Shown here: positions 39,748 to 62,989 of the stretch, in pieces
How positions within the stretch are numbered: position 1 is the stretch's first letter
How the letters are laid out: every line of letters starts with the position of its first letter
NCBI RefSeq assembly: GCF_900128445.1
Contig: NZ_LT671417.1
Location: forward strand, 2,491,201-2,555,200
Reading direction: 5' to 3'
Length of the DNA stretch: 64,000 nt
Origin: Thermophilibacter provencensis
GTDB taxonomy: Bacteria; Actinomycetota; Coriobacteriia; Coriobacteriales; Atopobiaceae
Made by a program: the position numbers and the translations under genes
The notes under the pieces: model-generated
Database searches by the model: none
The model's input: only the letters and a program-made list of their open reading frames with translations
Told to the model about the DNA's origin: nothing

Positions 39748-39912
39748 GAATGCCTCCTCGTTTGAATTGAACAAGGCAAACGTTAGCAGGTGAGACGTAA
39801 TAACTAAATAGTAAACTTTCGGCTAAATTGATGGTTGCACGTCACCTTCCATTTTCACGTACTACCGCAGCCACCCCGCGATCTTGCGGATACCCAGCAG
39901 CCTGTCAGCGAT

Positions 39913-41039: not shown

Positions 41040-41125
41040 TGCGCCTCCGTTCGCGATGGCTTCAAGTGTCTAGACCATAGCAACCGGACCGGACAATAAT
41101 CCCTCCTAGGGCACGCGGAGGACGT

Positions 41126-42250: not shown

Positions 42251-42276
42251 GGCGCCTCCTCGCGTCGAGGGCTCCG

Positions 42277-42345
42277 TTTTCGTTATTTTATCCGTTTTCG
42301 TTTTTTTATTTTTTCTCGTTTTTCTATTTGAGATGGGAGGACGTC
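42277..42345 (-). promoter_or_regulatory. AT-rich leader with AACGAAAACGG iterons upstream of the AAA ATPase
   Basis: On the minus strand AACGAAAACGGATAAAAT is followed directly by AACGAAAACGGA, preceded by an A/T-rich tract. A close copy of this ~50-bp leader lies at 44632-44690. The ATPase's own winged helix could bind it; that is inference. Confidence 0.5.
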
Positions 42346-42431
42346 GAGCGCAGCTGCGGACCCGTGACCACAACAAATAGGCCCGGGAGCCGCCCTCAGC
42401 TCCCGGGCCCGCACGCGTCAACAGTCAGCAC

Positions 42432-42554
42432 CTACACCGTCATGCCGCCGTCGACGGCCAGGACCTCGCCCGTCACGTAGGACGCGAGGTCGCTCGCCAG
42501 GCAGACGAAGGCGCTGAGCACGCCCTTGGTGTTGGTGTCGATGATCTTGCCAAG
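42432..42554 (-). pseudogene. SDR oxidoreductase (FabG-like) C-terminal remnant
   Basis: About 40 codons ending at a TAG: EELGKIIDTNTKGVLSAFVC, then LASDLASYVTGEVLAVDGGM TV. The TNTKG segment and the YVTGExLxVDGGM end are classical short-chain dehydrogenase pieces that are normally ~100 residues apart, so an internal deletion joined them. Confidence 0.75.
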
Positions 42555-42616
42555 CTCCTCACAATAGCGTCAGACTTGATTGTCAGTCAGGCTGCCGCCG
42601 CCCCGAACCGTGACGG

Positions 42617-42907
42617 TCACTCCATCACCTCGAACTCGTCGATGAACCAGCACGGTCGGTCTGAGTCGGGGTCCCCGTCGACGAACCAGCAGCCACCATG
42701 GCGACTTGGATGCATGGTCGGGCACTCGGCTACGGTCTCCCACGCATCGTCGTCCTCCGCCCTGTTCTCGTCAACGCATCGCTCGTATTCCCACTCGATT
42801 GATTCGACATAGGCAATCGCAGCCTCGCGCGTGGAGTAGACGCGCTCAACGTAGCTCAGGTGGTCGCTATAGCAGCCGGATTCATGTCGGACGAGATAGA
42901 CCTTCAC
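42617..42907 (-). CDS. Small acidic hypothetical protein
   Basis: A 96-residue protein rich in Asp/Glu and aromatic residues (MKVYLVRHESGCYSDHLSYV, REAAIAYVESIEWEYERC, CWFIDEFEVME). GGGGAGGAAG lies upstream. The start resembles small DUF proteins that display a beta strand plus helix, but no firm family can be named. It is isolated between the SDR remnant and the AlbA_2 gene. Confidence 0.55.
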   Translation of the reverse strand: MKVYLVRHESGCYSDHLSYVERVYSTREAAIAYVESIEWEYERCVDENRAEDDDAWETVAECPTMHPSRHGGCWFVDGDPDSDRPCWFIDEFEVME

Positions 42908-42983
42908 TTCTTCCTCCCCTTGCTATGACGGACTCGTTTGCCCATGAGCCAGCTTATGCTGTCCTAAAACATCGCAGAGGAGC

Positions 42984-44405: not shown

Positions 44406-44431
44406 GGTGATCACCACCTAGATTGAGTTTC

Positions 44432-44545
44432 TCGGTACCGTAATTCTACCGTAAAACCGTGTCTCTATACCGTTCTTTTACTTACGATACCGTAATTTGG
44501 CCAAAAACCGTTATCTATACCGAAAAGTCTCGCGAAATACCGAGA
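44432..44545. promoter_or_regulatory. Cluster of ACCGT(A) boxes upstream of the AlbA_2 gene
   Basis: At least six ACCGT and two ACCG boxes in ~115 bp: GGTACCGTAATT, CTACCGTAAAACCGTG, ATACCGTTC, ATACCGTAATT, AAACCGTTAT, ATACCGAAAAG and ATACCGAGA. All face the same way on the plus strand, in AT-rich DNA. This is a typical multi-site operator layout. Confidence 0.65.
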
Positions 44546-44555
44546 AATCGGCTGT

Positions 44556-44690
44556 CACACCTCGGCCCCTCGCCGCAAGCAACGCCTTGCGATTCCCATC
44601 CAGAAGCTCCCCCGTAACCGAAATCGTGGTTTTATCCGTTTTCGTTATTTTATTTTTTCTCGTTTTCTTATTCGAGAAATGCGGCTCACT
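44556..44690 (-). pseudogene. Deletion remnant of a second AAA ATPase gene
   Basis: On the minus strand the A/T-rich leader (as upstream of the ATPase at 41126) runs straight into GGGGAGCTTCTGGATGGGAA and onward, encoding GELLDGNRKALLAARG. This matches the ATPase C-terminus REYLIENREALLARYG. Everything between leader and last ~20 codons is gone. Confidence 0.72.
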
Positions 44691-44776
44691 GGGCGCGACC
44701 GAAAAGCGCCTGTCCTCAATACAAAACGGGCCCGAAAGCAACTCCAGGGCCCGTGAAGTCCAGCGCTACCGCGCGA

Positions 44777-45526
44777 CTACCAATCATGAAAGTCGTCTTT
44801 CACCGGCGACCACGTCCCAGCCAGGAAGTCGACAGGCTCGGTCGTCTCCTCTATTCGCACGCCGATTCGCTCGAGGAATCCCCGGTACTGCTCGTCAACG
44901 CCAAAGAACGGGTCCGTGTCCGCACCGCTCGGGATCCCCTTCTCCAGGAGGGCGAGGCACAGCTCGCGCTCGTCCTCCCAACGCTTGCCTCGCCGCCACA
45001 CGTCATGGATGCACGCGTCGGGACTCGGGAGAATCCAGACCGTCCTGTCCTTCCGGTTGTGGAACCCAGCGCACTCCGCGATGTCGACAACGTTGACGCG
45101 GACGATTCCGCGGCCGCCCCCGTTCTTCTCCTTGTCCGGCATGAACGAGGTATGGAACAGGCGCCCGCCGGCAGCGAACACGTCGCTCTTGACCGGATGC
45201 ACGTAATGGTGACGGGCAACAAGAACCGACACGACCGCAAGCGCGGCAAACACGACGAACACAGCAGCGCCGATCACGGCGAGCCACGTGACGTCCCGAT
45301 CCCCAAACTCGCCGCGCAAGACGCCGTCGACGAGTGTCACGACGACGATGGCAAAGACGATGAGGAAGACCAGGGCGAAGGCGGCCACCCCGAGCGCCGT
45401 GCTGTCATGCGCGTAGGAGCGCCCGAACGTCCAGGCGGCCTTTGCCGCGGCCTTCTCGTCGTCCGTCGGCTCGATGATCCGTGCCAGACGCTGGCTCGAC
45501 CGCTCTTGTCCCCTACTCATCTCCAT
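44777..45526 (-). CDS. Two-span membrane protein, function unknown
   Basis: 249 residues. After a charged N-terminus there are two hydrophobic segments (ALGVAAFALVFLIVFAIVVV and WLAVIGAAVFVVFAALAVVS), then a ~140-residue soluble C-terminal domain with YVHPVKSDVFAAGGRLFHTSF and REELCLALLEKG-like helices. No family recognised. It lies 17 nt upstream of the PIN gene end on the same strand; a role with the toxin-antitoxin pair is not evident. Confidence 0.6.
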   Translation of the reverse strand: MEMSRGQERSSQRLARIIEPTDDEKAAAKAAWTFGRSYAHDSTALGVAAFALVFLIVFAIVVVTLVDGVLRGEFGDRDVTWLAVIGAAVFVVFAALAVVSVLVARHHYVHPVKSDVFAAGGRLFHTSFMPDKEKNGGGRGIVRVNVVDIAECAGFHNRKDRTVWILPSPDACIHDVWRRGKRWEDERELCLALLEKGIPSGADTDPFFGVDEQYRGFLERIGVRIEETTEPVDFLAGTWSPVKDDFHDW

Positions 45527-45543
45527 AGCCTTTCCGAACGCAC

Positions 45544-46029
45544 CTACTCCCCAACCAGCGCGAGAAAGTCGTCCACCGAGAGCGCCGCCACGGGAGCGTG
45601 GCGCAGAAGTGCCTCGTCGCTGGTCACGAGATAGTCAGCCTTCGCGCGCTGAGCCGCCGCCAGAACCATACAACCCTCGAAGTCCGTGTGGATTCGCTGA
45701 TACTTTCGTGCAAGCCAGACATCCGAGGAATCGGCGCCCACAGCCGTCGCAATCTCGTCCATGTTGGTGACGCAGGCCGCGGCGTAGGCGGCTATGGCGC
45801 GAGCCTGGCCCTCGGAGAGCGCCGTACCCGCCGTCCGTGCCTGACGCTTGAGCGAGGCACCCACGAGGTAGAACACGTCCTTCGACGTGCCGATCGCGTA
45901 GAGCAGATCAATCCCCTTGCGAATGCAGACATCGATCAGCTCGCTTGCCTCGCGGGAGCGCGGACGTGCCCCGTCGAACGCGTCGAGCCAGACGTTGGTA
46001 TCGAGAAGAACGCGCGAAGGCTGTGACAT
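45544..46029 (-). CDS. PIN-domain ribonuclease toxin
   Basis: A 161-residue PIN domain. Acidic metal ligands are visible at VLLDTNVWLDAF (first Asp), the central SKDVFYL/EIA region, DFEGCMVLAAAQRAKADYLVTSDEALL (Asp at DFEG and SDE). It begins immediately after the antitoxin stop codon. PIN toxins cleave RNA and are held inactive by the upstream antitoxin. Confidence 0.87.
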   Translation of the reverse strand: MSQPSRVLLDTNVWLDAFDGARPRSREASELIDVCIRKGIDLLYAIGTSKDVFYLVGASLKRQARTAGTALSEGQARAIAAYAAACVTNMDEIATAVGADSSDVWLARKYQRIHTDFEGCMVLAAAQRAKADYLVTSDEALLRHAPVAALSVDDFLALVGE

Positions 46030-46407
46030 CTACGCCTCCCTGTCCAGGCGCTCGTCATACCAGTCCTCGCGGAGGTCGTCCCAGGATGGGATGTCCGCCC
46101 CGTCGTTTCCGAGGATGCCGAGCTCGCGGGCCGTCCGTGCGTACAGGGAACGCAGGCCGATAATCGCGGATGCCTTCCGAGCCGACTCGTCAGAGAGCGC
46201 AGAAGCCACACCGGGCTCGATGACCTTGCGCACAGACGCCGCGTCATCCTGATGGTCCACCACAAACTGCCAGAGCCCGCGCACCGCCGCCGACGGCGAG
46301 TAGCCAAGCCGCGTGAGCACGGCGTCCCCGGCTTCTTTGAGGGCCATGTCTATGCGCGTATTCATCTGCGTCTGCCGAACCTGCGGCGCCGCGGTTGTTC
46401 CTGGCAT
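46030..46407 (-). CDS. RHH antitoxin paired with the PIN toxin
   Basis: About 125 residues. TQMNTRIDMALKEAGDAVLTRLGYSPSAAVRGLWQFVVDH is the ribbon-helix-helix pattern of RelB/DinJ-type antitoxins, followed by an extended toxin-binding region. It is paired with a PIN toxin, where VapB-type partners are usual. GAGG lies 7 nt before ATG 46407; ATG 46413 is possible. The promoter contains a repeated TATAGCAG/TATAGCAA element (46428-46442). Confidence 0.82.
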   Translation of the reverse strand: MPGTTAAPQVRQTQMNTRIDMALKEAGDAVLTRLGYSPSAAVRGLWQFVVDHQDDAASVRKVIEPGVASALSDESARKASAIIGLRSLYARTARELGILGNDGADIPSWDDLREDWYDERLDREA

Positions 46408-46465
46408 ACTCATCACCTCGACTTTGTATAGCAGTATAGCAAGAATAATCTGACATGCGATGACC

Positions 46466-46516
46466 TTTGCTCAGAAAAGTTGACTCAAAACTTTTGACTC
46501 AACTTTTCTGAGCAAA
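46466..46516. repeat. 25-bp-arm palindrome TTTGCTCAGAAAAGTTGA
   Basis: Arms 46466-46490 and 46492-46516 around a single C, with one mismatched pair. It carries GACTCA in the core and resembles the GACTGTCC palindromes in layout. It is located between the second ADP-ribosylglycohydrolase and the antitoxin promoter. Confidence 0.8.
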
Positions 46517-46562
46517 ACAACCGAGCAAACTCGAGCATGTCGAGAAATAAAGCAAGCACGCC

Positions 46563-47339
46563 TCAGAACAGGCAGCTCTCGATGAGGGCCTTGCCCCGCA
46601 GCTTGTTTAGCCACTCGAGCGGGATTCTCTCGATGCCGTAGACGATGCCGGCGAGCGCGCCGGCGACGGCGGCCGTGGTGTCCGTGTCGTCCCCGAGGTT
46701 CACCGCGGCGAGCGTGCACTCGGCGTAGCTCGACGTGTTGGCCAGGCACCAGAGCGCGGCGTCGAAGGTGTCACGCACGAAGCCGCCTGAGCGAATCTCG
46801 TCCACAGGGCGCGCAGCGATATCTCCCGCCACGTCCGCCGAGCTCGCGCCGGCGATGAGGTCCCGCGCGATATGCACAATGGCAACGCACGCCTCCGTGG
46901 ACGTTGGGTGCGCGTGCGTTATCGCGGAGGCGGCGCGCACCTCGTCGTCGGTGGCATCGGTGAACGCGAGCGGGACCGTGCGCATGAGCGAGCCGTTGCC
47001 GTTGTCCCACTCCCCCGCAAGGCCGTGCCCGCGCTCGAGCGCCTCGCGCGTTGCGTTACCGATGTCGAAGAGCCCGTTGACCGTGTAGGCGCCGTCGCGA
47101 TACCACCGCACGAAGCGCTCGCGGATGTCATCGACGTCAATGCGTCCCAGCTCACGATAGCTGTCGCAGATTGCAAGCGCCATCGACGTGTCGTCGCTCC
47201 ACGTACCCGCCGGCTGGTTGTGGCTGCCGTGGCCGATCATGTCCGTGCAGCGGAACGAGCCCCGCGGACGAAACTCGTACGGAACGCCCAGCGCGTCGGC
47301 CACCGCCTGACCGTAGACACAGTCGCGAAGTGTTGGCAT
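46563..47339 (-). CDS. ADP-ribosylglycohydrolase (DraG/ARH family), copy 2
   Basis: 258 residues, closely similar along its length to the gene at 36105: MPTLRDCVYGQAVADALGVP, GTWSDDTSMALA, GNGSLMRTVPLAF and VNLGDDTDTTAAVAGALAG. All metal-binding aspartates are present. GAGAGGGG precedes ATG 47339. It has no MBL partner. Placement inside the island suggests a function against ADP-ribosylation-based effectors or simply a duplicated house enzyme. Confidence 0.9.
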   Translation of the reverse strand: MPTLRDCVYGQAVADALGVPYEFRPRGSFRCTDMIGHGSHNQPAGTWSDDTSMALAICDSYRELGRIDVDDIRERFVRWYRDGAYTVNGLFDIGNATREALERGHGLAGEWDNGNGSLMRTVPLAFTDATDDEVRAASAITHAHPTSTEACVAIVHIARDLIAGASSADVAGDIAARPVDEIRSGGFVRDTFDAALWCLANTSSYAECTLAAVNLGDDTDTTAAVAGALAGIVYGIERIPLEWLNKLRGKALIESCLF

Positions 47340-47389
47340 GGTTGCCCCTCTCAAAACGGCACCTCAAACAATACGTCAAACGAGACAAC

Positions 47390-48364
47390 TCACCCGCGCA
47401 GCTCCGCTTCAATCTCCTCGATGGTAAGAAGCGAGCCACGAAGTTCCTCCGGCATCAGCTTGGAGAGCTCGTACTCGGATATGCCGATCGGCTGGCTGGA
47501 GCCCTCCACCGCGTACTGTGCCAGCACATTGTCTTTGCCTTTGCAGATAAGAAGCCCGACCGTTGGCTGATCAATCTCGCTCTTCAGGATGTGGTTGACC
47601 GCCACGACGTAGGTCCCGAGCTGCCCCACGTACTCCGGCCTGAAGTCGGTGGCCTTAACCTCAATGACCACATAGCATTGAAGTGCGGCGTGGTAGAAAA
47701 GAAGGTCGATCCACTGTTCCGTCTTCCCCACCACCAGACGGTACTCCCGACCGAGGAGAGCGAAGCCCATTCCCAGCTCCATCAGGAACTGGGAGATATT
47801 GGTCATCAGGGCATCCTTGAGCTCACGCTCGTCGTAGTCGTCGCGAATGGCGAGAAAGTCGAACTGATAGGGGTCGCGTGTGATCTCCCGAGCGAGGTCG
47901 CCCTGCGGGGCGGGAAGCGCACTCGTAAAGTTGTTTACCGCCTTGCCCTGACGCTCATAGAGACCGCTATCCAGATAGTTGAGCAATACGGCGCGCGACC
48001 AGCCATTCTCCACGGTCTTACGGATGTAGAACTCCGCTTTCTCGCGGCTGCCACGACACTTGTCAATAATCGTTCTGATATGGCCCCATGGGACAGAGAA
48101 CAACTCATCGCAAGCCGGCAATTCTGCCATAAGTTGTGGCAGAATTGCCGGGCCCACAGGAAGCAGCTCGTAGAAGCGCTTCATGTACCGAAGGTTGCGC
48201 GGCGAGAAGCTCTTGGCGTTCAGAATCTCCTTTTTAAGGTCCCTGCTCGGCGTCTCGAAGAACCCCGAGCCCCACCAACTCTCAGCATGCAACTCGGCAA
48301 TGTCTTTTCCCAACTGCCAGTAGAACAGCAAAATCTCACGGTTTACCGAATCTGCCGCCTTGAT
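47390..48364 (-). pseudogene. DUF1016/YhcG-type PD-(D/E)XK nuclease, 5'-truncated
   Basis: About 325 codons. The DUF1016 N-terminal region (VNREILLFYWQLGKDIAEL, FSPRNLRYMKRFYELLP, WGHIRTIIDKC) and nuclease domain (LGREYRLVVGKTEQWIDLLFYHAALQCYVVIEVKATDFRPEYVGQL; catalytic D..EVK) are intact. The frame is open only back to 48364, where a TAG precedes IKAADSVNREIL, and no ATG, GTG or good ribosome site exists there. Roughly 20 N-terminal residues of the family are missing. TTG 48331 is a weak alternative start. Confidence 0.78.
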
Positions 48365-48560
48365 CTAACTGCATATTTACATCATTAGCAAAGCCGCTAA
48401 GCCAGAGACAACGCTCAAGATGATTGATTAACGTCGTGTTCTACACCACGTCAGTTGTTTTCTAAACGCCATCTATACCCCAGCATATACTGCCGCATGA
48501 TATGGTCTAATCCAGCAAGCTGGTTTCTGAATATCTGATATGACAGACAAAAAGCCGGCA

Positions 48561-49178
48561 CTACACCTCGTGCCTTGTCTTCATGGAATTAAGCAGTCCT
48601 ACGCCGACCTCTAGCGTCCAAATAATGGAGTCAAAAGAGTATTTATCGATATCTCCGTGTGCAGCGCTGTTAAGTGGTGGTATCAAGTCTCGAAGGAGCG
48701 CATATTCGTCTGAATTAATCAGTTTGTCATTGTGCAGGATACTAGCAAGTTTGCCCAATCCACACCTGTAAAACTGAACATTGTTCTTTTCGGCAATTGC
48801 TCGTAACGTTTTTTCAAGCTCTATGCGCAGTGAAACTAAGGCGAGCTTTGGATCGCCCTGGACAATATCATCCAATGATCCATCAATCCTCTGCGCAGTT
48901 AGATTATCAACTTCGACTGCCTCAAGATTTAGTTTTTGTATATTTTCCTGCATTCTTACCTGTGTTTCCCTGTCAATTAACTCAACTTTTCCGATACCAC
49001 TAATCTCCAAAGTCTTTATATAGGGAATTAACCACGGCATAAGAGCAAATATAATTAGGATGATGAAAGTACTGTCAATGCTGGCCTTAGGGAAAACTAC
49101 ATGAAGAATCGCTAGGGTGACAAATAGAGCAGTAATAATAATGCTTAGAGCAACCTTCGACTTCTTCATATTAATCAT
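48561..49178 (-). CDS. Low-GC membrane protein with HEPN-like C-terminal helices
   Basis: 205 residues. Two membrane segments near the N-terminus (VALSIIITALFVTLAILHVVF and FIILIIFALMPWLIPYI) precede a helical cytoplasmic domain ending in YALLRDLIPPLNSAAHGDIDKYSFDSIIWTLEVGVGLL. The AAHG pattern recalls DUF4145/HEPN-like domains, but catalytic residues are not certain. GC content is far below the rest of the window, a sign of recent transfer. Possible abortive-infection membrane effector; unproven. Confidence 0.6.
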   Translation of the reverse strand: MINMKKSKVALSIIITALFVTLAILHVVFPKASIDSTFIILIIFALMPWLIPYIKTLEISGIGKVELIDRETQVRMQENIQKLNLEAVEVDNLTAQRIDGSLDDIVQGDPKLALVSLRIELEKTLRAIAEKNNVQFYRCGLGKLASILHNDKLINSDEYALLRDLIPPLNSAAHGDIDKYSFDSIIWTLEVGVGLLNSMKTRHEV

Positions 49179-49319
49179 GAAAACCCCGATTCATGTCACA
49201 TTTTCAGTCTCTGAATAGAGTATCAAAATTATGGGCCTTGAGAGGGTAATCGACTATGGGGGTGACAGGACCTCGAAGTCACGCTCGGGATGCCGTTAAG
49301 CGTGAGCGCAGATGACGCT

Positions 49320-50029
49320 CTAGTCCCATACATACAAATCGCACTGCTCTTTTGGGATTACCAGGCAGCTCTTGTCGAAGCTGCCCTTGAAGTGCGCCTT
49401 CTTCCCCGCGAGGGCACATCGGATAGCTCAGAGTTATAAGCCGTAAGTGTGAGGTTGCCCAGCGTGTTGATGAGCTCTTCGTAGACGCGCTCGCAGTCAT
49501 CCCCAAGCATCTCGCGCCACTCCGCACTAGCAAGCGCATTCAGCGGCTTCGCGTGCCAGCTGTTCTCAAGCGTGGTGAGCAGGTAGAAGCCACGTTTGAA
49601 CGCGTAGCAGTCGCGCGTCCTGAGCGCCCGCTCGAACTCCGCGTCGCTCGGCATGCGTCGAGCCGTCCCCTCCTCTCCCAGAAGAATCGCCTCATAGGCC
49701 TCGCGGATGTTGCCACCGTCATCCCGCACCGCGTTCAGCCGCGCAATCACGGACAAGAAGAACTTGTTCAGGCTGTTTGTCGCAACGTCACACACAGAGC
49801 GACGGAAGAGGTAGCTCTCCGTGGTCCTCAGCATGGAAGCGAAGTCGTCATGCGAGAGGGCATCGCCGACATAGTCCTCGAAGAAGGACATGAGCAGCGG
49901 GTTCACAACGGAGACGTCGAGCGCGTGGATGCGAGCGAGAAGAACGCGGAGCACCTTGTCCTCACAGGCACCAGCCGTGATGCACGCGTAGTGCCCGCCA
50001 TAGCGGTAGCGCAGTCCAGCTATATCCAA
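49320..50029 (-). pseudogene. DUF262/DUF1524 (GmrSD-like) nuclease C-terminal fragment, frameshifted
   Basis: The fragment contains the helical middle of GmrSD-type enzymes (VSVVNPLLMSFFEDYVGD) and DUF1524 sequence INTLGNLTLTAYNSELSD. At about 49415 the frame slips: KKAHFKGSFDKSCLVIPKEQ and CDLYVWD-stop continue in another frame to 49320. The N-terminal ParB-like DUF262 domain is absent. It is therefore doubly broken. GmrSD systems restrict modified phage DNA. Confidence 0.75.
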
Positions 50030-53570: not shown

Positions 53571-53733
53571 GTGGTCATCTCCCAAGTCTCTGTCAGCGTG
53601 GTAACTGAAGATTCTAGGCGGTGGCCACACCCCTTTTCGGGGGTGCTCTAACATGCTCGACACCATCATCTGGCACGTAATCTAAAGCAGCTGAGGAGAT
53701 AACATGCTTCAACGCCATCTCCTCAGCTCAAGC

Positions 53734-54183
53734 CTACAGTGGTATCAGAGACAGTCCCTGCTCGTTTTTCAACATCGCCTCTATGACGTCATCATTCCCG
53801 TCGGACACCAAGGCAACCAAATCTCGGGTATTGTTCCCCACCGTGCGGACAACCGCCCAAACAGGCACAAAGCCCTTCAGTTCGCTCTCCGGAACAAAAT
53901 CATGATCTGCGTCAATATAGTTCTCGAACAATTCTCCTCCAAGATGTGCGCCAGCTCGTCGGCGCATCTGTGCCAGGGCCGTCGGACGGAGTATCTTGCG
54001 CTCCGCCCAACGGCCTATAGAATTAGAGTCTGTCGGACGGGCTAAGCCCGCTCCGAGCCGCCTCGTAGAGCCCCGTCTGCACACGGGGCTCTACCCTCTC
54101 TTGCGGAACCTGATCCTGCCAACATAGCGAATCCTGGTCGGCAGCATTCGGAACCGTACGCGTATAGTCCTCACAGCTCATCA
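53734..54183 (-). CDS. Hypothetical protein, possibly frameshifted
   Basis: The clearest part (53734-54084) encodes NSIGRWAERKILRPTALAQM, GGELFENYIDADHDFVPESE and LKGFVPVWAVVRTVGNNTRD, ending KNEQGLSLIPL. No family recognised. A different frame from ATG 54183, behind a strong GGGGAGG, encodes MSCEDYTRTVPNAADQDSLC and ends at a stop near 54030. The two may be halves of one gene joined by an indel near a GC-rich hairpin (54066-54093). Confidence 0.45.
54066..54093. repeat. 11-bp hairpin TAGAGCCCCGT
   Basis: TAGAGCCCCGT, loop CTGCAC, ACGGGGCTCTA; perfect. It lies where the two possible frames of the hypothetical gene overlap. Confidence 0.7.
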
Positions 54184-54247
54184 CCTCCCCTCGCATCGAG
54201 AGAATTAACCGGCCGCTGATATGTAGATCAACCTGTCAAGAGGCAAG

Positions 54248-54497
54248 ACCGTCCCGGCCCGCGGAGGTGCGGGTTGGGACGGTTTCGCTATGCTCCGATC
54301 CGGGGCGGCGGCGCGGCGGAGAGCCGGAAGGCTTCAGCGATCTCCAGTCTGACATCCGCGCGTCGTGGCGCATTCCGATCTGTCCGGCGCGGGGCACCCG
54401 CTTTCTAGGATCGCGCGTCGCCAGGGGCTGCGCATAGCGGCATCGCGGTTCTCCCCATCGCCCGCCCGGCGCCTGCGCCCCGGGGGTCGGCGGTTTG
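54248..54497 (-). ncRNA. Candidate IS110 non-coding end / bridge-RNA region
   Basis: 250 nt between a strong hairpin (ACCGTCCCGGCCCGC at 54248, partner GCGGGTTGGGACGGT ending 54283) and the stop of the IS110 transposase. No gene is visible. GC-rich segments could fold into several stems. IS110/IS1111 elements encode a structured guide RNA in one non-coding end, and here the downstream side is the longer one. This is an inference from layout only. Confidence 0.4.
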
Positions 54498-55583
54498 TCA
54501 GCCCTCGCAGTTGGCGAGGGCCCAGACGAAGCCGGCGAGCTCGCGCGCGACGGCGACGTTGGCCTTCGCGGGGCGCACGCCCCTCCTCCTCAGCCGCTCC
54601 GCCTTCGAGTGGAGCCTCCGGTTGGCCTCCGCCGCGACGCGAGCGGCCTCCGGGCCTATCCCCCGGCGCGCGGCGACCTCGGTCGGCAGCAGGGGGCTCC
54701 ATCTGCGCGCGTGGTGCCAGGCGGCCTCGACGAGCAGCGTCCGGACGTGGGCGTTGCCCGTCCGCGTGATCGGCCCCCGCGCGACCGAGCCGCCCGACGA
54801 GCCCTCCGAGGGCACGAGGCCGAGGTAGGACATGAACGAGGGGGCCGTCGGGAAGCGCGAGAAGTCGCCGATCTCGGCGGCCACGGAGAAGGCGGTGACG
54901 GTGGAGATGCCGCGCACGGCCGAGAGCCGGGAGACGACGGGGCGCCACTCGTCGGTCGCGGCGAGCGCGGCGATGGCGGCGTCGAGCCGGTCGCGCCGCT
55001 GCTCGCAGGCGACGACCTGCTGCAGGTACTCCGAGAGCACGAGCCCCTCGGTCGAAAGCGGCAGCTCGATGGAGCGCAGCCAGTCGCGGTGGGCTGCGGT
55101 CCAGGCGCTCTTCCCCGGGTAGACGAGCCCCTTCCTCAGCAGCATCTTGGAGAGCCTGTGGCGTGCCGCCATGAGGTCGTCCCGGGCGTCGGCGCGGGCT
55201 CGGGCGAGGTCGCGGGCGGCCTCCTGCCCGGGCGTCGGGCACCACACCTCGACGACGTTGCCGACCGCGAGCATGCGCGCCAGGAACACGGCGTCGCGCC
55301 TGTCAGTCTTCACGCGGTCCCCGGCCGGCCGGAGCATCTTGCTCACCGCGCCCACCACGCACGGCAGACCGAGGGCGTCGAGGGAGCGCTTGAGGTCGAA
55401 GCCGGTGGGGCCGGACTCGTAGACGGCCCGCGCGGGCTGCGGCAGGGCCGCCGCCCACGCGGCGACGGCGGCCGCGTCGTAGCCGAACGAGCTCTCCTCG
55501 ACCTCCCCGGTCTCCGGGACGAAGGCCGCCGCGGCGATCGAGCGGGCGTGTACGTCGAGGCCGACGCTGGTACGATAGATCAT
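54498..55583 (-). CDS. IS110-family transposase (DEDD recombinase)
   Basis: A 361-residue protein. The N-terminal RuvC-like DEDD domain has SVGLDVHARSIAAAAFVPET (first Asp), RAVYESGPTGFDLKRSL (Glu) and VKTDRRDAVFLARML (Asp pair). The C-terminal Transposase_20 domain has AVRGISTVTAFSVAAEIGDFSRF, SYLGLVPSEGSSG and TGNAHVRTLLVEAAW with the nucleophile Ser zone (PSEGSSGG). It is full length and undisrupted, unlike the neighbouring IS fragments. Element ends are not certain. Confidence 0.93.
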   Translation of the reverse strand: MIYRTSVGLDVHARSIAAAAFVPETGEVEESSFGYDAAAVAAWAAALPQPARAVYESGPTGFDLKRSLDALGLPCVVGAVSKMLRPAGDRVKTDRRDAVFLARMLAVGNVVEVWCPTPGQEAARDLARARADARDDLMAARHRLSKMLLRKGLVYPGKSAWTAAHRDWLRSIELPLSTEGLVLSEYLQQVVACEQRRDRLDAAIAALAATDEWRPVVSRLSAVRGISTVTAFSVAAEIGDFSRFPTAPSFMSYLGLVPSEGSSGGSVARGPITRTGNAHVRTLLVEAAWHHARRWSPLLPTEVAARRGIGPEAARVAAEANRRLHSKAERLRRRGVRPAKANVAVARELAGFVWALANCEG

Positions 55584-55701
55584 GGCTGGGACCTCCTATG
55601 ACTTGTGGCGGGCCTGTCTCACGACTCGAGCCTAACCCACGTCGCCGCTGGCGCGGCCCTTGGTTCATAGAGAGAGGTCCCAGTCGCTCTCTACATATCT
55701 T

Positions 55702-55827
55702 CTAGTGGCACCTGGCCCTGTGCCTGGCGAGCGTCTTGCCATCCTTCGACTTCTGCTTGCTCGATGTCGACGACTTGGCGAGACGTCTTGCCGCGGCTCC
55801 AAGCCTGCCGCCCGAATGACGCGCCAT
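55702..55827 (-). CDS. Small basic protein (41 aa), function unknown
   Basis: ATG 55827 has an exceptional ribosome site, GGGGAGGAGG, 5 nt upstream. The product MARHSGGRLGAAARRLAKSS then TSSKQKSKDGKTLARHRARC H is highly basic (Arg, Lys, His rich). It lies between the IS110 transposase and the divergent AAA gene. Nucleic-acid binding is plausible from charge alone. It is too short to assign a family. Confidence 0.5.
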   Translation of the reverse strand: MARHSGGRLGAAARRLAKSSTSSKQKSKDGKTLARHRARCH

Positions 55828-55878
55828 ACTAGCCTCCTCCCCACATCCGAACTCCTACTTAAGGCGATAGTAGCATCT

Positions 55879-55906
55879 CTCGATTTGAAAATCTAGAACT
55901 CGATTT
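55879..55906. promoter_or_regulatory. Direct repeats CTCGATTT upstream of the AAA-subtilase pair
   Basis: CTCGATTTGAAAAT at 55879 and CTCGATTTCAATCC at 55899 are 20 bp apart, two helical turns, in an AT-rich stretch. A TATACT box follows at about 55935 and a strong GGAAGGAGAGGAG ribosome site before ATG 55968. It is a plausible operator for the C-terminal HTH of the AAA protein. Confidence 0.45.
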
Positions 55907-55967
55907 CAATCCGTCCCATTTTGACCAGAATCAGCTATACTGGAGAAGTGGAAGGAGAGGAGACAAT

Positions 55968-56999
55968 ATGAAGCGCGCCGATATCGTCAGGCTTATTCGT
56001 GCCCATTGCGATCAGGACAATATAGAGTTCAACACCGTAGCCCATTACATTGCCCAAGAGTTTGAGAGCACGGGCGAGCATGAGCTCGCCTCCTACATCA
56101 TGTCCCTCATCTCGCAGACAAGGACATTTGTTCCCCAAGACTTTGGCGAGACTCACGTCTACCTCCGCCCGGTGACAATTGACAACGCCCCCCTGCCCCT
56201 CCCTGAATGCATTGCCGGCGATCTCCGAGGAATCATCAACGCTGTCAGTAGGAACATGGGCGTCAACGCATTTCTGTTTCAGGGCCCTCCGGGAACCGGG
56301 AAAACCGAATCGGCAAAACAGCTGGCAAGAATCCTTAGTCGCACCCTGTATATCGTTGACTTCAATTCAGTAATCGATAGTCATCTCGGAGAAACCTCTA
56401 AGAACATCTCGTCTCTGTTCGAGGAGGTCAATCAGGCCGGTAAGAGAGCGGTAGTCCTTTTCGACGAGATTGACGCACTCGCTCTGGACCGTATCAACCA
56501 AAACGACGTTCGCGAGATGGGTCGCGCAACATCTACGCTGCTCAGGGAGCTCGACAATCTCTCTGAGAGCGTCGTAGTCATCGCCACCACGAACCTCTAC
56601 GACAAACTCGACCGGGCGCTAACCCGACGCTTCGACACGTCGGTTGACTTCAGCCGCTACACCCATGAGGACCTCGAGGATGTTGGCGTGTCCATCATGT
56701 CCCAGTACGCCTCTCAGCTTGACTTCATTCGTAGCGACCTCAAGCTCTTCAAGAAGATCCTCCACTGCGCCTCAAAGCTCCCCTTCCCCGGAGAGCTGTC
56801 AAACACCATCAGGAGCTGCGTGGCGTTCAGCGATCCCAACAACCCCTACGACTACCTGAGGCGCCTGTTCGAGGCGCTGTCGCCTTCGACAAATATGTCG
56901 GTAGCAAGCCTATCTGCCCTCGGGTTTACAGTGCGAGAGATTGAGGCGCTGACGGGCACGCCAAGGAGCACGGTCTCGCGCATGATCAAGGAGGTGTAA
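55968..56999 (+). CDS. AAA+ ATPase with C-terminal HTH, partner of a subtilase
   Basis: 343 residues. A helical N-terminal region (~1-85) is followed by an AAA core: FLFQGPPGTGKTESAKQLAR (Walker A), VVLFDEIDALALDR (Walker B), VVVIATTNLYDKLDRALTRRFD (sensor and arginine finger). The last ~35 residues, LSALGFTVREIEALTGTPRS TVSRMIKEV, look like a resolvase-type helix-turn-helix. The stop is 1 nt before the subtilase GTG start. The AAA class resembles the FtsH/katanin-like ATPases paired with S8 proteases in defence islands. Likely role: regulate or feed the protease. Trigger unknown. Confidence 0.85.
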   Translation: MKRADIVRLIRAHCDQDNIEFNTVAHYIAQEFESTGEHELASYIMSLISQTRTFVPQDFGETHVYLRPVTIDNAPLPLPECIAGDLRGIINAVSRNMGVNAFLFQGPPGTGKTESAKQLARILSRTLYIVDFNSVIDSHLGETSKNISSLFEEVNQAGKRAVVLFDEIDALALDRINQNDVREMGRATSTLLRELDNLSESVVVIATTNLYDKLDRALTRRFDTSVDFSRYTHEDLEDVGVSIMSQYASQLDFIRSDLKLFKKILHCASKLPFPGELSNTIRSCVAFSDPNNPYDYLRRLFEALSPSTNMSVASLSALGFTVREIEALTGTPRSTVSRMIKEV

Positions 57000-57000
57000 C

Positions 57001-59238
57001 GTGAACAACCTGCTAATGCTCCAGAAGGACTTCGAATCAAAGTCCGCAGCCGCACCGACACACCCAACCATTCCGGCAAAGGCAGAGGTGAGCGCAAACG
57101 ACATGCGAAGGCTCGCCCGATCCCTTCGGAGCGCAATAGCTGCCTGGCCAAAGGAAGCCCCGCTGCAAAAGATGCTTATTAGCGTTGAGTACAGGAAGAT
57201 TGCCGCCAAGAGCAATCGAATCAAGCGCATCTTCGCGGAGGGGGCGCAGGACCCCGAAGTTAGCATTCGCGGCGCACGCTACGATGGGTCCGAAGACAGC
57301 AGACATCACGTAATTACTCATTACGTAAGTCGAGATGTTGCCGAGGCCTCTGCCAATGAATTGGAACTTGCGGCCAGCTTGCTGAAAGAACATTTCGGAG
57401 GACACATCGACAAGAAGTCGCTCGACAACCTCTGGGACAGGAGCGCTGGCAACACCAACGAGTCCTGGAAGAAGCTCACGGGAGGCGTGCTGTCCCGGAT
57501 TAACTTTGCCCGGCTCATCCACGATACCTGTCACGTTGCGGGGTTCGACATCCCTCGCCCCCCAGCAAAAGAAGACGATGTCGTCCTGACGACACTCTAC
57601 AGGACCGACGGAACGGCCTATGAGATGCTCCAGAGGCTGGGCATTGACGTCTTGTTCCTAGACACACTCGGAGACAGCGCCGTACTCAAGCAGGCGCAGT
57701 ACCGCAAGCTTTACGAGACTGCTCCTTACCTCATCGCCATGTCCACATTCGACATGTCCCAGCTCGACGCGATTGACGTAACTGAGCCCTCCGAGACTAC
57801 GGGTCCGCTATCCATCGGAAGCCCCTCAACCGAGCCCACCATCGGGGTCATAGATACCCCCTTCGACACGGAATACCCACCGTATTTCAGCGAATGGGTT
57901 GATGTTCACAATGAGTTGCCAGGAAGCGTTCTCCCAAGAAGCGAGGATTACGTCCATGGCACCTGTGTCACCTCGCTCATCGTAAACGGCCACATGATGA
58001 ACCCCGGCCTCGATGACGGCTGCGGGTGCTTTAGGGTGAGGCATTTCGGAATAGCCCCCGCAAACGGACTAAACTCGTTTGTAATAGCGCGCAAAATCAA
58101 AGATATCGTCGAAGATAATCCCGATATCCACGTCTGGAACCTTTCTCTTGGATCGGACAAGGAGACGGAGCGCTTCTGTATCTCCCCCGAGGCGGAGGTG
58201 CTAGACAAGTTGCAGAGCACCAGAAACGTATTGTTCGTGGTCGCCGCAACGAACAACAAAACCTGCAGAGTCCACAGGATTGGCGCCCCCGCGGACTCAG
58301 TCAACTCCCTAGTCGTCAGCTCCGTCAGACCAGACGGCACACCGGCAAGCTACAGCCGCAGCGGCCCAGTCCTGGACTTCTATCGCAAGCCCGACGTAGC
58401 GTACTATGGAGGCGACAATGGCTGCAAGCTCTCTGCCTGCTGCGGCACCGGAGAGAAACTATGCATGGGCACGTCATACGCAGCCCCGCTTATCGCGAGA
58501 AAGGCAGCATTTCTCATTGATGTGATGAGCATTCCTCGGGATGCAGCAAAGGCATTGCTTATCGACTCAGCATCCGGCTGGAGGAATGACGGCCCTCACC
58601 CAATCATCGGGCACGGTATCGTGCCCGTCGACATTCACGACGTGCTGGAAGCCCCAAACAACGAGATTAGATTCTTCTTGACCGGTACGGCAAACACCTA
58701 TGAGACGTACAACTACGGAATCCCCGTCCCCGTGGCAGGAAACGCATTTCCTTACCTTGCCCGTGCCGTCTTATGTTACGCACCAAAATGCGATAGGAAC
58801 CAAGGAGTTGACTACACCTCAACAGAGCTTGACCTGCACTTCGGTCGACTCCGGGCGGGAGGAGTAGCCTCAATAAAACTAAACACTCAGGGCGAGAAGA
58901 ACGACCGAACTACCGAGAAAGACGCACGCGATTTTCTAGGTAAGTGGGACAACGTGAAGCGAATCTGCGACAAAATCCCGGCTCACCCACGTGCAAGAAA
59001 AATCTACGACATGCCAGCATGGGGCATCAAGATTCGCAAGACATCCCGATTGAGCATGGGAGATCCGGCTGCCCAGCCTTTCGGCCTAGTGGCAACCCTC
59101 AGGGAGATAAACAATGCAAACCGAATTGATAGCTTCGTCCAGCATTGCGTTGCTGAGGGATGGATGGTACGCGCGTTCGATGTGGACACCCAAATTCGAA
59201 TTTTCAATGCGGAGCAGGTTGAGATCGAGTTCGAATAA
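57001..59238 (+). CDS. Cytoplasmic S8 subtilisin-like serine protease
   Basis: 745 residues from GTG 57001. There is no signal peptide, so it should act inside the cell. Residues ~1-270 are an N-terminal region without recognised domain. The catalytic domain follows: TIGVIDTPFD (Asp), DYVHGTCVTSLIVNG (His), VVAATNNK (oxyanion Asn) and CMGTSYAAPLIARKAAFLID (Ser). All four catalytic elements are intact. A ~200-residue C-terminal domain follows (FFLTGTANTYETYNYGIPVP onwards). It is cotranscribed with the AAA gene. Such pairs are known as uncharacterised or candidate anti-phage modules. Confidence 0.88.
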   Translation: MNNLLMLQKDFESKSAAAPTHPTIPAKAEVSANDMRRLARSLRSAIAAWPKEAPLQKMLISVEYRKIAAKSNRIKRIFAEGAQDPEVSIRGARYDGSEDSRHHVITHYVSRDVAEASANELELAASLLKEHFGGHIDKKSLDNLWDRSAGNTNESWKKLTGGVLSRINFARLIHDTCHVAGFDIPRPPAKEDDVVLTTLYRTDGTAYEMLQRLGIDVLFLDTLGDSAVLKQAQYRKLYETAPYLIAMSTFDMSQLDAIDVTEPSETTGPLSIGSPSTEPTIGVIDTPFDTEYPPYFSEWVDVHNELPGSVLPRSEDYVHGTCVTSLIVNGHMMNPGLDDGCGCFRVRHFGIAPANGLNSFVIARKIKDIVEDNPDIHVWNLSLGSDKETERFCISPEAEVLDKLQSTRNVLFVVAATNNKTCRVHRIGAPADSVNSLVVSSVRPDGTPASYSRSGPVLDFYRKPDVAYYGGDNGCKLSACCGTGEKLCMGTSYAAPLIARKAAFLIDVMSIPRDAAKALLIDSASGWRNDGPHPIIGHGIVPVDIHDVLEAPNNEIRFFLTGTANTYETYNYGIPVPVAGNAFPYLARAVLCYAPKCDRNQGVDYTSTELDLHFGRLRAGGVASIKLNTQGEKNDRTTEKDARDFLGKWDNVKRICDKIPAHPRARKIYDMPAWGIKIRKTSRLSMGDPAAQPFGLVATLREINNANRIDSFVQHCVAEGWMVRAFDVDTQIRIFNAEQVEIEFE

Positions 59239-59254
59239 AAACTCATCACATAAT

Positions 59255-59291
59255 GATTGCCGGGGCGACCGCTTTGACCGTCCCGGCAATC
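59255..59291. terminator. Hairpin terminator between the subtilase and mcrC
   Basis: GATTGCCGGG (59255-59264) and CCCGGCAATC (59282-59291), 17-nt loop containing GACCGTC. It is placed 17 nt after the subtilase stop and before the convergent mcrC gene. The rest of the gap to 59522 shows no supported gene. Confidence 0.6.
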
Positions 59292-59522
59292 TCAAAAACG
59301 ACCTGGCATCTGCTCCTCATAATACGCACCCGTATAAAGCTCGATAGTCTTCGGTATATTCCCCCATCATCGTCATACGCGAGAGCATCATCACTTCGCA
59401 TTCTCGGTCTTGACGAAGGGCTCTGGCGACGTAGGTTCGGCTCATCAGAGATTCGGAGCAAGGGCCCCTACCCACTTTTCGCGACACTACACACGTATCG
59501 TCTACGGCGTAATCCCTGCCGC

Positions 59523-60568: not shown

Positions 60569-62989
60569 CTAGAACACGCTCTCGAGCTTCTCGGTGATGC
60601 TGGCAACCTTGTCCTGATCGTCAAACCAATACTCGGCAATGAGCGGCTCAATCTCGTAACGAGCAACGCTGTGCACCTCATCGTCGGACACACCCGCGCC
60701 CAGACAGAAGTAGCTGTGGCCAATGCAGAAGCCCTTCCCCAGGGTCGGGTCCTCGGCAATCCGCTGATTCACCTCTCGCACCTCATCTACCAGCGCGTTG
60801 AGCTTTTTGCTTCCCGTTTGATTCAGCCTTTCAGCAAACCCGGGGGAATCGAGCGCAGGTGCCATGTCAAAGAAGGCGAAGCGCCGACGAAGCGCATAAT
60901 CAATAAGGGCGAGGCCACGGTCGGCGGTGTTCATCATGCCAATGAGGTACAGGTTCTCAGGAACTGAAAGCCTGCTGCGATCAGTTGCCAGCACAACGGA
61001 ATCTCCGCGATGATCAGCCTCGATGAGCAATAGCAGCTCGCCAAACACCTTTGAGATGTTTGCCCGATTGATCTCGTCGATAATGAAGAAGTACTTTCGT
61101 GCGATATCGCGCGCGGCGCGGCTGCAAAACTCGGCGAACACGCCGGGCTGGATGTCGAAGCCACCCTCACCGTTGGGACGGTACCCAACGACGAAATCCT
61201 CGTAGGCGTACGACTGGTGGAACTGCACAAAGCCGATGCGCGAATCATCCTCCTCGCCCATCATGGCATACGCAAGTCGTTTGGCGGCATACGTTTTGCC
61301 CGTACCCGGTGCACCCTGCAGAATGAGGTTCTTCTTTCGCTCAAGCAAACCCTTCATGGTAGAGAGGTCTTGCCTGGAGACAAAGACGTCCTGGAGGAAC
61401 TGCTCATCGCTATACGGCTTTTTGTCAGATGCCTGAATGGGCGATGTGTCATCCTCGTCAAACATCTCTTCGAGCCGCAGATACTCTTCTTCTGTGAGCT
61501 TGAAGAAGCTGCCGTTGGGATTCTTGCAGAACTCGCACTGAGACAGCGTTGGGTCATCCTTAATGTCAGCAAGCGGAACGGGGGCATCAAGATCGCGCAC
61601 CTTCTTGAAATACAGGCGCTTACCGTCTTGTGGCTTTGATACCTCACAGATGGCTACGATCTTCTTCACGGGCGTGGTCTCATAGCCAACAACCACATCG
61701 CCCGCCCGGGCATCGAGGAAGTTCTTATAAATGCGTCGCGGATTGCCCTTCTCATTACGAATGGTGTAGCTCTGCTCTTCCCCCACGGCAATCTCGGAGA
61801 ACGACCAAATCTTCCTGTTGGCGGTAAGCCACCAATACTGTTTGGAGGCGTCCAAAGCACCTGCGGCATCCCCTGGGCCTGGCTTGGCGTACAGCGGGAC
61901 ACTGCTAAAATCTCGTGACTTCAGGGCCTCTTTAAGCTCGGGGCGAATCATCCACAGGAATGAGCCACTCTCCTCCGTTGAGGCGCTTTTACCGTAAAAC
62001 ATGACTGCCCAGTATTTCCCCTGCCACAGCGGACAGTGAAGCTCTTCAGCAACGCGCTTGGCAAACCAAACGGCAACGTTTCGATAGTGCTCCGCACTCT
62101 CGCCGTAAGTCTCTGCAAGCTGTGTGCAGGTCGCCTTTCCGCCGACATCCATCATGCGGCGAAGCAGTGCCTGTGCCTGTGAATTAAAGATGGAAGGGTC
62201 ATCGAGCATCATGTCCCAGACATCAGCATCGATTCCGGGGTCGTAGTCATCAAGCTTGGGGAAATATCCCTTGGGGGTTTTCGGCGCAGGCTTCCACAAG
62301 TACGCATCGGCAGAGAGCTCGTAGAAGGGCTTATCCGTTGCGGCGCGCACGGCATCCATGATGGCAAGGTAGCCCTCGCCGGTGGGCAAGGCGTTGCCCT
62401 TGACCTCGATGCCGAGCTTCTGGGCAAGATAGTCCCTGCTGTGGGCATCGAGGGGCATGAAGCAGCCGGGCTGGATCCAGAAGAGGCCAATAGTGATGTT
62501 CCATTTAATGCAGCGCTGGGAGCGGACGACGTCAAACGCATGAGCCATTTTATGGCGAGACTCTACTCCTGCAGGGTTGTCAGCCAGTTCCATTGCGGAG
62601 CAAAAGAGCTCCCACAGGTTATCGATATCATGCGCATCACGGTCCTGCTTACCTGCAAAGAACCAGCTGCGCATATTGTTTACATGCGGTAGTCCCTCGT
62701 AGTCCGTTGGCGTGGCAACATTTTGGCTGCCAAGACCGTCGAGCGCTAGCCGAACAATACGATTCCTCTTTTCCCAACTGACACCGCGATTGAAAGAGGC
62801 GAAGAACGTAAACGGATCAATGGTAGTAAGACCTTCCGCCTCTACATCAATGGGAAATGTCAAATCCTTGTTGCCGCTGAAGATAGATTCAAACAGTTCC
62901 AGCAGACGGGACCGATTGTCACTTAAGCCGTAAATCCCCTGCACGATTGCGGCGTATGCAGGAATCCAAGAAAACTGAGTCTGAGACAT
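60569..62989 (-). CDS. mcrB: McrB-type GTPase with internal EVE-like domain
   Basis: 806 residues. A long N-terminal region (~1-375) includes helical segments. An EVE-like modified-base-binding domain follows at ~385-465 (YWWLTANRKIWSFSEIAVGE, FLDARAGDVVVGYETTPVKK). The AAA motor has LILQGAPGTGKTYAAKRLAY (Walker A), FVQFHQSYAYEDFVVGYRP, YFFIIDEINRANISKVFGEL (Walker B) and the McrB signature MMNTADRGLALIDYALRRRF. TTGGAGGACC precedes ATG 62989. The EVE domain would read the DNA modification, so target specificity may differ from E. coli McrBC. Confidence 0.92.
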   Translation of the reverse strand: MSQTQFSWIPAYAAIVQGIYGLSDNRSRLLELFESIFSGNKDLTFPIDVEAEGLTTIDPFTFFASFNRGVSWEKRNRIVRLALDGLGSQNVATPTDYEGLPHVNNMRSWFFAGKQDRDAHDIDNLWELFCSAMELADNPAGVESRHKMAHAFDVVRSQRCIKWNITIGLFWIQPGCFMPLDAHSRDYLAQKLGIEVKGNALPTGEGYLAIMDAVRAATDKPFYELSADAYLWKPAPKTPKGYFPKLDDYDPGIDADVWDMMLDDPSIFNSQAQALLRRMMDVGGKATCTQLAETYGESAEHYRNVAVWFAKRVAEELHCPLWQGKYWAVMFYGKSASTEESGSFLWMIRPELKEALKSRDFSSVPLYAKPGPGDAAGALDASKQYWWLTANRKIWSFSEIAVGEEQSYTIRNEKGNPRRIYKNFLDARAGDVVVGYETTPVKKIVAICEVSKPQDGKRLYFKKVRDLDAPVPLADIKDDPTLSQCEFCKNPNGSFFKLTEEEYLRLEEMFDEDDTSPIQASDKKPYSDEQFLQDVFVSRQDLSTMKGLLERKKNLILQGAPGTGKTYAAKRLAYAMMGEEDDSRIGFVQFHQSYAYEDFVVGYRPNGEGGFDIQPGVFAEFCSRAARDIARKYFFIIDEINRANISKVFGELLLLIEADHRGDSVVLATDRSRLSVPENLYLIGMMNTADRGLALIDYALRRRFAFFDMAPALDSPGFAERLNQTGSKKLNALVDEVREVNQRIAEDPTLGKGFCIGHSYFCLGAGVSDDEVHSVARYEIEPLIAEYWFDDQDKVASITEKLESVF

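What the first reader, a model, noticed from the sequence alone, without database searches (positions are those of the whole stretch)
55968..59238. Self-contained AAA ATPase-subtilase pair: candidate protease-based defence system
An intact AAA+ ATPase and an intact intracellular S8 protease are fused into one operon (1-nt gap) between IS elements and McrBC/HsdS. Both have all catalytic residues, while most nearby genes are broken, so the pair appears recent and under selection. Similar AAA-S8 pairs have been noticed in defence islands, but I know of no settled mechanism. A protease unleashed by an ATPase sensor would be an abortive-infection design.
Basis: partly seen in the sequence, partly recalled or inferred. 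Interest (0 to 1): 0.8.

Follow-up and report, generated by a model that had tools for sequence, protein, structure and literature searches.

The report
ATPase–protease toxin–antitoxin gene pair
The pair is a real, intact two-gene module in a gut bacterium: a protein-cutting toxin made next to the ATPase that most likely restrains it, a distant branch of the already known IetAS toxin–antitoxin and anti-phage family, so mostly familiar, although whether this branch stops phages is an open and testable question.

Summary
An intact AAA ATPase (55968-56999, 343 aa) is followed after 1 nt by an intact S8 protease (57001-59238, 745 aa) among defence genes and IS elements. It is not an unnoticed kind of system. 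PADLOC names the pair IetA/IetS (E 7.4e-44, 3.5e-61), but NCBIfam's IteA/IteS cut-offs are far from met. Tree and profile comparisons put it in a separate, deep branch of the AAA–S8 family. That branch holds a Mycoplasma hyorhinis pair; published work names M. hyorhinis among homologues of the mycoplasma TA132/3 system, in which the S8 gene is the toxin and the AAA gene its antitoxin (PMC8562856). The scan found 448 related stretches; of the 80 loci kept, 77 hold both full-length genes, ATPase first. Catalytic and Walker residues are kept wherever read, and dN/dS is 0.08-0.09. The protease model has a subtilisin-type prodomain; the ATPase ends in a helix-turn-helix. Best reading: a proteolytic toxin held off by its ATPase and freed when the pair is perturbed, as by phage or gene loss. 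Restraint is published for relatives; the phage trigger here is inference.

The parts
55968..56999 (+). IetA-like AAA ATPase, 343 aa, predicted antitoxin
   Evidence: ORF; Pfam AAA 1.6e-29; PADLOC IetA 7.4e-44; profile-profile match to 11 IetA-type proteins over 332 columns, E 6.5e-42
55974..56111 (+). N-terminal three-helix region of IetA (residues 3-48)
   Evidence: AF2 model; shared with the distant IetA branch
56271..56654 (+). AAA core (residues 102-229): Walker A 106-113, Walker B 162-167, N209, R220/R221
56901..56993 (+). C-terminal helix-turn-helix of IetA (residues 312-342), possible DNA binding/autoregulation
   Evidence: three helices in model; HTH_IclR E 0.0091 (below cut-off); HTH_38 in 13 of 67 relatives, best 3e-6
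57001..59238 (+). IetS-like S8 protease, 745 aa, GTG start, predicted toxin
   Evidence: ORF; Pfam S8 5.1e-29; PADLOC IetS 3.5e-61; start supported by invariant N2 in alignment
57001..57570 (+). N-terminal domain of IetS (residues 1-190) with conserved AKSNR motif (69-73)
   Evidence: K70, S71, R73 and H103 in 103 of 103 rows with letters; related AK[ST][NH]R in 6 of 11 distant IetS-type proteins
57571..57750 (+). Subtilisin-propeptide-like (I9-type) domain, residues about 191-250
   Evidence: strand-helix-strand-strand-helix-strand order in model; alignments to pro-subtilisin structures start at residue 191
57829..58650 (+). S8 catalytic domain (residues about 277-550): D285, H319, N418, S492
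58651..59235 (+). C-terminal domain of IetS (551-745), beta-rich, partly matched by the C-terminal part of KP-43/SubHal
55702..55967 (+). Upstream region shared with L031 and L032; candidate promoter/operator, including a GATTTGAAAATC dyad (55882-55893)
   Evidence: the sigma-70 scan found no promoter match
59255..59291 (+). Inverted repeat just past the pair (13-nt arms, 92% complementary); candidate hairpin at the end of the unit
   Evidence: no run of T, and one search lists no + strand terminator

Best explanation
A chromosomal AAA-S8 toxin-antitoxin pair of the IetAS/TA132-3 superfamily, most likely working as an abortive-infection or island-stabilising module. (1) The S8 protein is a cytosolic subtilisin-like toxin that damages the cell by proteolysis (shown for relatives, inferred here). 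(2) The co-translated AAA ATPase binds it and keeps it inactive (neutralisation shown for relatives; binding inferred). (3) The protease carries a subtilisin-type prodomain ahead of its catalytic domain, so the ATPase probably acts by holding or restoring the latent state rather than by feeding substrate (inferred from the model). (4) The C-terminal helix-turn-helix of the ATPase suggests that it also represses its own promoter (inferred). (5) Phage infection, or loss of the genes, upsets the balance and frees the protease (inferred; anti-phage activity is reported for the distant IetAS branch, recalled).
For: Both PADLOC halves hit. Profile-profile homology to IetAS-type pairs over the whole ATPase (E 6.5e-42) and over protease columns 267-733 (E 3.6e-58). 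The M. hyorhinis pair lies in the same branch: ATPase 44%, protease 37% identity; PMC8562856 section 15 lists M. hyorhinis as a TA132/3 homologue and shows toxin-alone constructs fail (<10^2 against ~10^6 transformants/ug with both genes) for M. bovis, M. feriruminatoris and M. gallisepticum; section 12 shows S8 toxicity and its neutralisation in E. coli. PMC6755753 passages: knockout of the ATPase alone is lethal, of both viable. Gene order and coupling: 77 of 80 loci full-length, spacing -50 to +9 nt, 75 of 77 within 20 nt. Of 396 class genomes the same 14 hold ATPase and intact protease. Distances of A and S correlate, r 0.903, n 78, 0 of 2000 permutations as high. Selection dN/dS 0.08-0.09. 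Prodomain. Neighbourhoods: 184 and 223 PADLOC families matched among 134 and 135 neighbour ORFs, 16 among 129 control ORFs.
Against: NCBIfam IteA/IteS equivalog cut-offs not met: 121.5 of 510 and 155.8 of 900 bits. The first 250 residues of the protease align only weakly with those of IetS (probability 9.7%, E 0.0033). L029, an unverified phage-labelled contig, has an S8 frame starting near residue 258 with no ATPase found in the 10.9 kb before it. L059 has an intact protease behind an ATPase gene with one in-frame stop. In B. subtilis the mycoplasma toxin was detected but the paper reports no growth defect for it (PMC8562856 section 12). No phage test exists in my evidence for this branch. 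The neighbourhood test counts families, not proteins, and its control is from Coriobacteriia only.
Confidence: 0.7

Rival explanations
1. Stabilisation module only: the pair is an addiction cassette that keeps a mobile element or island in the genome and has no role against phages.
For: The Agrobacterium pair is known for plasmid stability and incompatibility (title seen in reference lists; content recalled). Full-length branch members occur on Carnobacterium and Macrococcus/Macrococcoides plasmids. GC 55.2% against 65.8% for the window suggests transfer.
Against: Neighbours are rich in restriction genes compared with control ORFs, and the distant IetAS branch is catalogued as anti-phage by PADLOC and NCBIfam. 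Addiction and defence do not exclude each other.
Confidence: 0.2
2. ATP-dependent degradation machine: the AAA ring recognises phage or host proteins and feeds them to the S8 protease, as in FtsH or the proteasome; the ATPase is activator, not antitoxin.
For: Best Foldseek matches of the ATPase model are proteasomal ATPases; arginine fingers and Walker motifs invariant.
Against: Published genetics of relatives goes the other way: the protease is toxic without the ATPase and neutralised with it (PMC8562856, PMC6755753). AAA domains of this clade resemble many functions.
Confidence: 0.07
3. Ordinary intracellular protease with a housekeeping chaperone, not a conflict system.
For: Chromosomal position; subtilisin fold close to ordinary secreted and intracellular subtilisins.
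Against: Patchy: 16 of 396 class genomes match, 2 of these only as broken pieces; relatives assigned to 11 phyla in 74 of the 80 loci, many of them metagenome bins; island context.
Confidence: 0.03

Closest known systems
Mycoplasma TA132/3 AAA-ATPase/subtilisin-like protease toxin-antitoxin (PMC8562856, PMC6755753)
   Same: Same gene order, sizes (353/757 aa against 343/745) and no intergenic gap; a named homologue (M. hyorhinis) lies in the same tree branch with full-length similarity.
   Different: About 37-44% identity; high-GC actinobacterial host; toxicity and neutralisation not tested for this pair. The M. mycoides proteins themselves were not compared.
IetAS (IteA/IteS), pTiC58 toxin-antitoxin and PADLOC/NCBIfam anti-phage system
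   Same: AAA gene directly before S8 gene; PADLOC profiles hit; ATPase homologous over nearly its whole length, protease from residue 267 on.
   Different: About 25% identity over the C-terminal two thirds; below NCBIfam cut-offs; separate branch, SH-aLRT 100; N-terminal domain barely alignable.
Trip13-type AAA regulator of HORMA-CBASS (works-like comparison only)
   Same: AAA ATPase that, as recalled, switches a defence effector off; PADLOC TRIP13 E 1.3e-17; 6p8v_C among Foldseek matches, rank 27.
   Different: IetA profiles score far better; the effector here is a protease, with no cyclase or HORMA seen in the window genes scanned.

Membership tests
AAA-S8 (IetAS-like) superfamily | AAA ATPase gene immediately before an S8 protease gene, same strand | tested here: met
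   Window, 1-nt gap; 77 of 80 relatives
AAA-S8 (IetAS-like) superfamily | Homology of both proteins to IetA and IetS | tested here: met
   PADLOC; hhalign
AAA-S8 (IetAS-like) superfamily | Intact Walker motifs and S8 catalytic residues | tested here: met
AAA-S8 (IetAS-like) superfamily | N-terminal protease domain shared with IetS | tested here: inconclusive
   hhalign probability 9.7%, E 0.0033, but the AKS[NH]R motif aligns; AK[ST][NH]R in 6 of 11 distant proteins
IteAS equivalog (NCBIfam NF042959/NF042956) | Curated score cut-offs 510 and 900 bits | tested here: not met
   121.5 and 155.8 bits: not filed as an IteAS equivalog
IteAS equivalog (NCBIfam NF042959/NF042956) | Anti-phage activity | not testable with these tools
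   needs phage assays
Mycoplasma TA132/3-type pair | Full-length similarity to, and same branch as, a named TA132/3 homologue | tested here: met
   M. hyorhinis L024; named in PMC8562856 section 15
Mycoplasma TA132/3-type pair | Direct match to M. mycoides T133/A132 | not tested
Mycoplasma TA132/3-type pair | Toxicity of the S8 protein and neutralisation by the ATPase | not testable with these tools
   needs expression assays

The most novel reading that the evidence does not exclude
This deep AAA-S8 branch, which includes the mycoplasma pair kept in the near-minimal cell JCVI-syn2.0/syn3A, is an unrecognised anti-phage family distinct from IetAS. In it a Trip13-like AAA off-switch clamps a protease that still carries its own subtilisin-type prodomain, and infection releases a proteolytic cell-death effector; in some lineages a HAD-like partner (PDC-S34) has joined.
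Probability: 0.3. Interest if true: 0.6.

Novelty: new member of a known kind. Interest (0 to 1): 0.36.

Why it matters
If the reading is right, the AAA-S8 toxin-antitoxin of mycoplasmas, including the one in the minimal cell, and the anti-phage IetAS are two branches of one family, and the question of what triggers the protease can be asked in non-pathogenic gut actinobacterial material. I found no solved structure of IetS by sequence search (23 matches at E<=0.001, by name all other subtilases), and my paper searches (open-licence PMC only) listed no mechanistic study of IetAS; subscription papers were not seen. The full-length model offers a concrete hypothesis: in-cis prodomain plus in-trans AAA restraint.

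Tried and rejected
Rejected: the IS110 as carrier of the pair (L031 lacks it). Rejected: McrBC as part of the system (no match in L031 or L032 flanks). Tried without result: sigma-70 promoter scan (0 found, 1.7 expected) and + strand terminators (none listed); a shared upstream operator: the GATTT-N2-AAATC dyad is kept in L031, not in L032. A fixed third gene: the commonest neighbour cluster reached 7 of 80 loci. The small basic ORF before the pair was found in 4 of 94 loci by a loose pattern, one of these (L030) of another kind. Seed searches of neighbours gave only McrB 3, type III Mod 3, Res 1, integrase 2, IS110 1, IS481 1, IS30 1 loci of 80, so the restriction-rich picture rests on PADLOC. 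Tree caveats: quick search, no bootstrap, unrooted, warnings of long branches meeting in the IetAS rows; the set was 42 branch rows and 11 others, chosen by me. A result against the orphan-free picture: L029 (not in the counts) and L059.
Full report
Observation. The window holds two intact, adjacent genes: an AAA ATPase at 55968-56999 and an S8 protease at 57001-59238, separated by one nucleotide. Pfam confirms both (AAA E 1.6e-29; Peptidase_S8 E 5.1e-29). The genome is a 2.63 Mb, 3-contig assembly with a single copy of the pair; the nearest relatives are an Atopobiaceae metagenome bin (protease 91%) and Olsenella sp. An188 (73%). dN/dS against the first is 0.078 for the ATPase and 0.091 for the protease; against the second it is 0.053 for the protease, with saturated dS, and was not computable for the ATPase. 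The pair is 55.2% GC in a 65.8% GC window.

Surroundings. Upstream lie IS481 and IS110 transposases and, further off, a GmrSD-like fragment, a PDC-S02 protein, a pAgo-like fragment and a methyl-directed nuclease-like gene; downstream McrC, an EVE-McrB protein and a partial HsdS. Only 8 further window ORFs were scanned with PADLOC and 5. DNA similarity with L031 covers window 55702-59316 (89.5%) and 53690-54212 (82.1%), which lie 3 nt apart in L031; the IS110 sits between them in the window. L032 matches 55719-59241 (72.3%) and 53977-54117 (69.8%). Apart from two matches under 75 nt elsewhere, neither locus matches the window further, so McrBC is not part of the transferred unit.

What it is. 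PADLOC hits are IetA (E 7.4e-44) and IetS (E 3.5e-61). NCBIfam's anti-phage IteA and IteS models are the best hits too, but at 121.5 of 510 and 155.8 of 900 bits. So it is related to, not an equivalog of, the catalogued anti-phage pair. tblastn splits the relatives in two: full-length ones at 36-42% in plasmid and phage records, and many at 22-29% over the C-terminal part, including annotated iteS genes. Profile comparison joins the branches: ATPase 332 columns, E 6.5e-42; protease columns 267-733, E 3.6e-58; the N-terminal protease domain only weakly (probability 9.7%, E 0.0033), although an AKS[NH]R-type motif aligns there. The pattern AK[ST][NH]R occurs in 6 of 11 distant proteins, while shuffled sequences show it at about 0.0002 per sequence. 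A 53-row tree puts the 42 rows of this branch on one side of a branch 3.92 changes per column long (SH-aLRT 100); it is unrooted and has long-branch warnings.

Spread. The genome-contig scan kept 448 stretches of 481 as relatives; the best 80 loci were fetched. By record title 74 of these fall in 11 phyla, 49 in Bacillota; many are metagenome bins, so single assignments are unsure. Of 80 loci, 77 have both genes full-length, spacing -50 to +9 nt, 75 of 77 within 20 nt; L037 is cut by the contig end, L059 has a stop inside the ATPase gene, L107 a short protease frame. In 396 class genomes, 16 match the protease, 2 of them (G155, G314) only in broken pieces; the other 14 are exactly the 14 with an ATPase match. 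Distances of the two proteins correlate (r 0.903, 78 pairs, 0 of 2000 permutations). Seven loci come from viral contigs, five plasmid-collection records hold at least 80% of the protease (the M. hyorhinis one, 844 kb, looks like a chromosome) and one phage-collection record does. One exception matters: L029, an unverified phage-labelled contig, has the catalytic and C-terminal part at 49% identity without the first 250 residues and without an ATPase in the 10.9 kb before it. It may be a remnant or an assembly artefact.

Defence neighbourhood. The nearest ORFs (up to two each side, at least 120 aa, within 4 kb) of 78 of the 80 loci, 269 in all, match 184 (134 ORFs) and 223 (135 ORFs) PADLOC families at 1e-15; 129 of 184 control ORFs from 20 stretches of seven Coriobacteriia genomes match 16. 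The listed top families are mostly type I and II restriction-modification genes and PDC-S34. These are counts of families, which overlap, not of proteins, and the control is taxonomically narrower than the test set. Seven loci carry a PDC-S34 HAD-like protein; in four of them it starts 13-23 nt after the pair.

Structure. The protease model (pLDDT 89.0, pTM 0.90) matches SubHal and KP-43 subtilases over residues 277-700 (Z 28.0 and 27.8, rmsd 3.1-3.2, 361 aligned). Alignments with pro-subtilisin structures begin at model residue 191 (3whi Z 24.0, rmsd 3.7, 317 aligned; 2zwo Z 23.2, rmsd 4.4, 317; 3t41 Z 22.9, rmsd 4.4, 325), and residues 194-250 show the strand-helix-strand-strand-helix-strand order of the I9 propeptide (order recalled; elements). 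The linker after it has lower confidence, 68-73 over 251-270. The ATPase model (pLDDT 85.4, pTM 0.72) has three N-terminal helices, an AAA core and a C-terminal three-helix HTH; Pfam HTH_38 is found in 13 of 67 relatives (best 3e-6) and HTH_23 in 4 of 11 distant ones (best 0.0011), the window protein itself only below cut-off.

Mechanism. Shown for relatives, in papers: toxicity of the S8 protein and rescue by the ATPase in E. coli and M. capricolum (PMC8562856: abstract, passages, sections 12 and 15), and lethality of losing the ATPase alone (PMC6755753: passages). Inferred here: the ATPase holds a prodomain-bearing protease in a latent state; the HTH may tie in self-repression; infection or gene loss frees the enzyme. 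Anti-phage activity of IetAS is recalled from Gao et al. 2020 (not held); listings of ietAS as a defence system and among systems with phage escape mutants were seen as passages in PMC11811056 and PMC10286901. Against an easy reading, the paper reports no growth defect for the mycoplasma toxin in B. subtilis although it was detected there.

Verdict. Real, intact, selected and probably functional, but a new member of a known kind. What is worth following is that this branch unites the mycoplasma toxin-antitoxin with the anti-phage IetAS family, and that I met no phage test of it in the searches named above.

Noticed in passing
window 55702-55827, - strand: A 41-aa basic ORF divergent from the pair; also found before the pair in L031 and, in a similar form, in L017; the DNA is conserved in L032.
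   Followed up: partly
window 54213-55701: IS110 element inserted where L031 has near-contiguous DNA (8696/8700), giving a natural empty site.
   Followed up: partly
window 55882-55893: GATTTGAAAATC dyad upstream of the ATPase gene, kept as a dyad in L031 and not in L032; possible operator for the ATPase's HTH.
   Followed up: no
window 60569-62989: McrB-type protein with an EVE domain (384-509) ahead of its AAA domain (554-704), next to McrC.
   Followed up: no
window 38409-50029, - strand: Further defence-like genes and fragments: mREase_II-like 38409-39263, pAgo-like piece 42987-44417, PDC-S02 47393-48331, GmrSD-like piece 49361-50029.
   Followed up: no
L075, L085, L095, L096, L101, L108, L110: PDC-S34 HAD-like protein near the pair in 7 of 80 loci, 13-23 nt after it in four.
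   Followed up: partly
L029 10944-12458: S8 protein of this branch without its N-terminal 250 residues and without the ATPase, in an unverified phage-labelled contig, after a helicase-like gene.
   Followed up: partly
L059 233-1275: Listeria costaricensis: ATPase gene with one in-frame stop in front of an intact protease.
   Followed up: no
L030 4149-7542 and L145 4512-7923: AAA-S8 pairs of the distant branch in E. coli phage vB_EcoS-683R6 and Paenibacillus phage Dash.
   Followed up: no
L024 4947-14280: The M. hyorhinis pair is followed on the same strand by several site-specific DNA methyltransferase genes and a DEAD/DEAH helicase.
   Followed up: no
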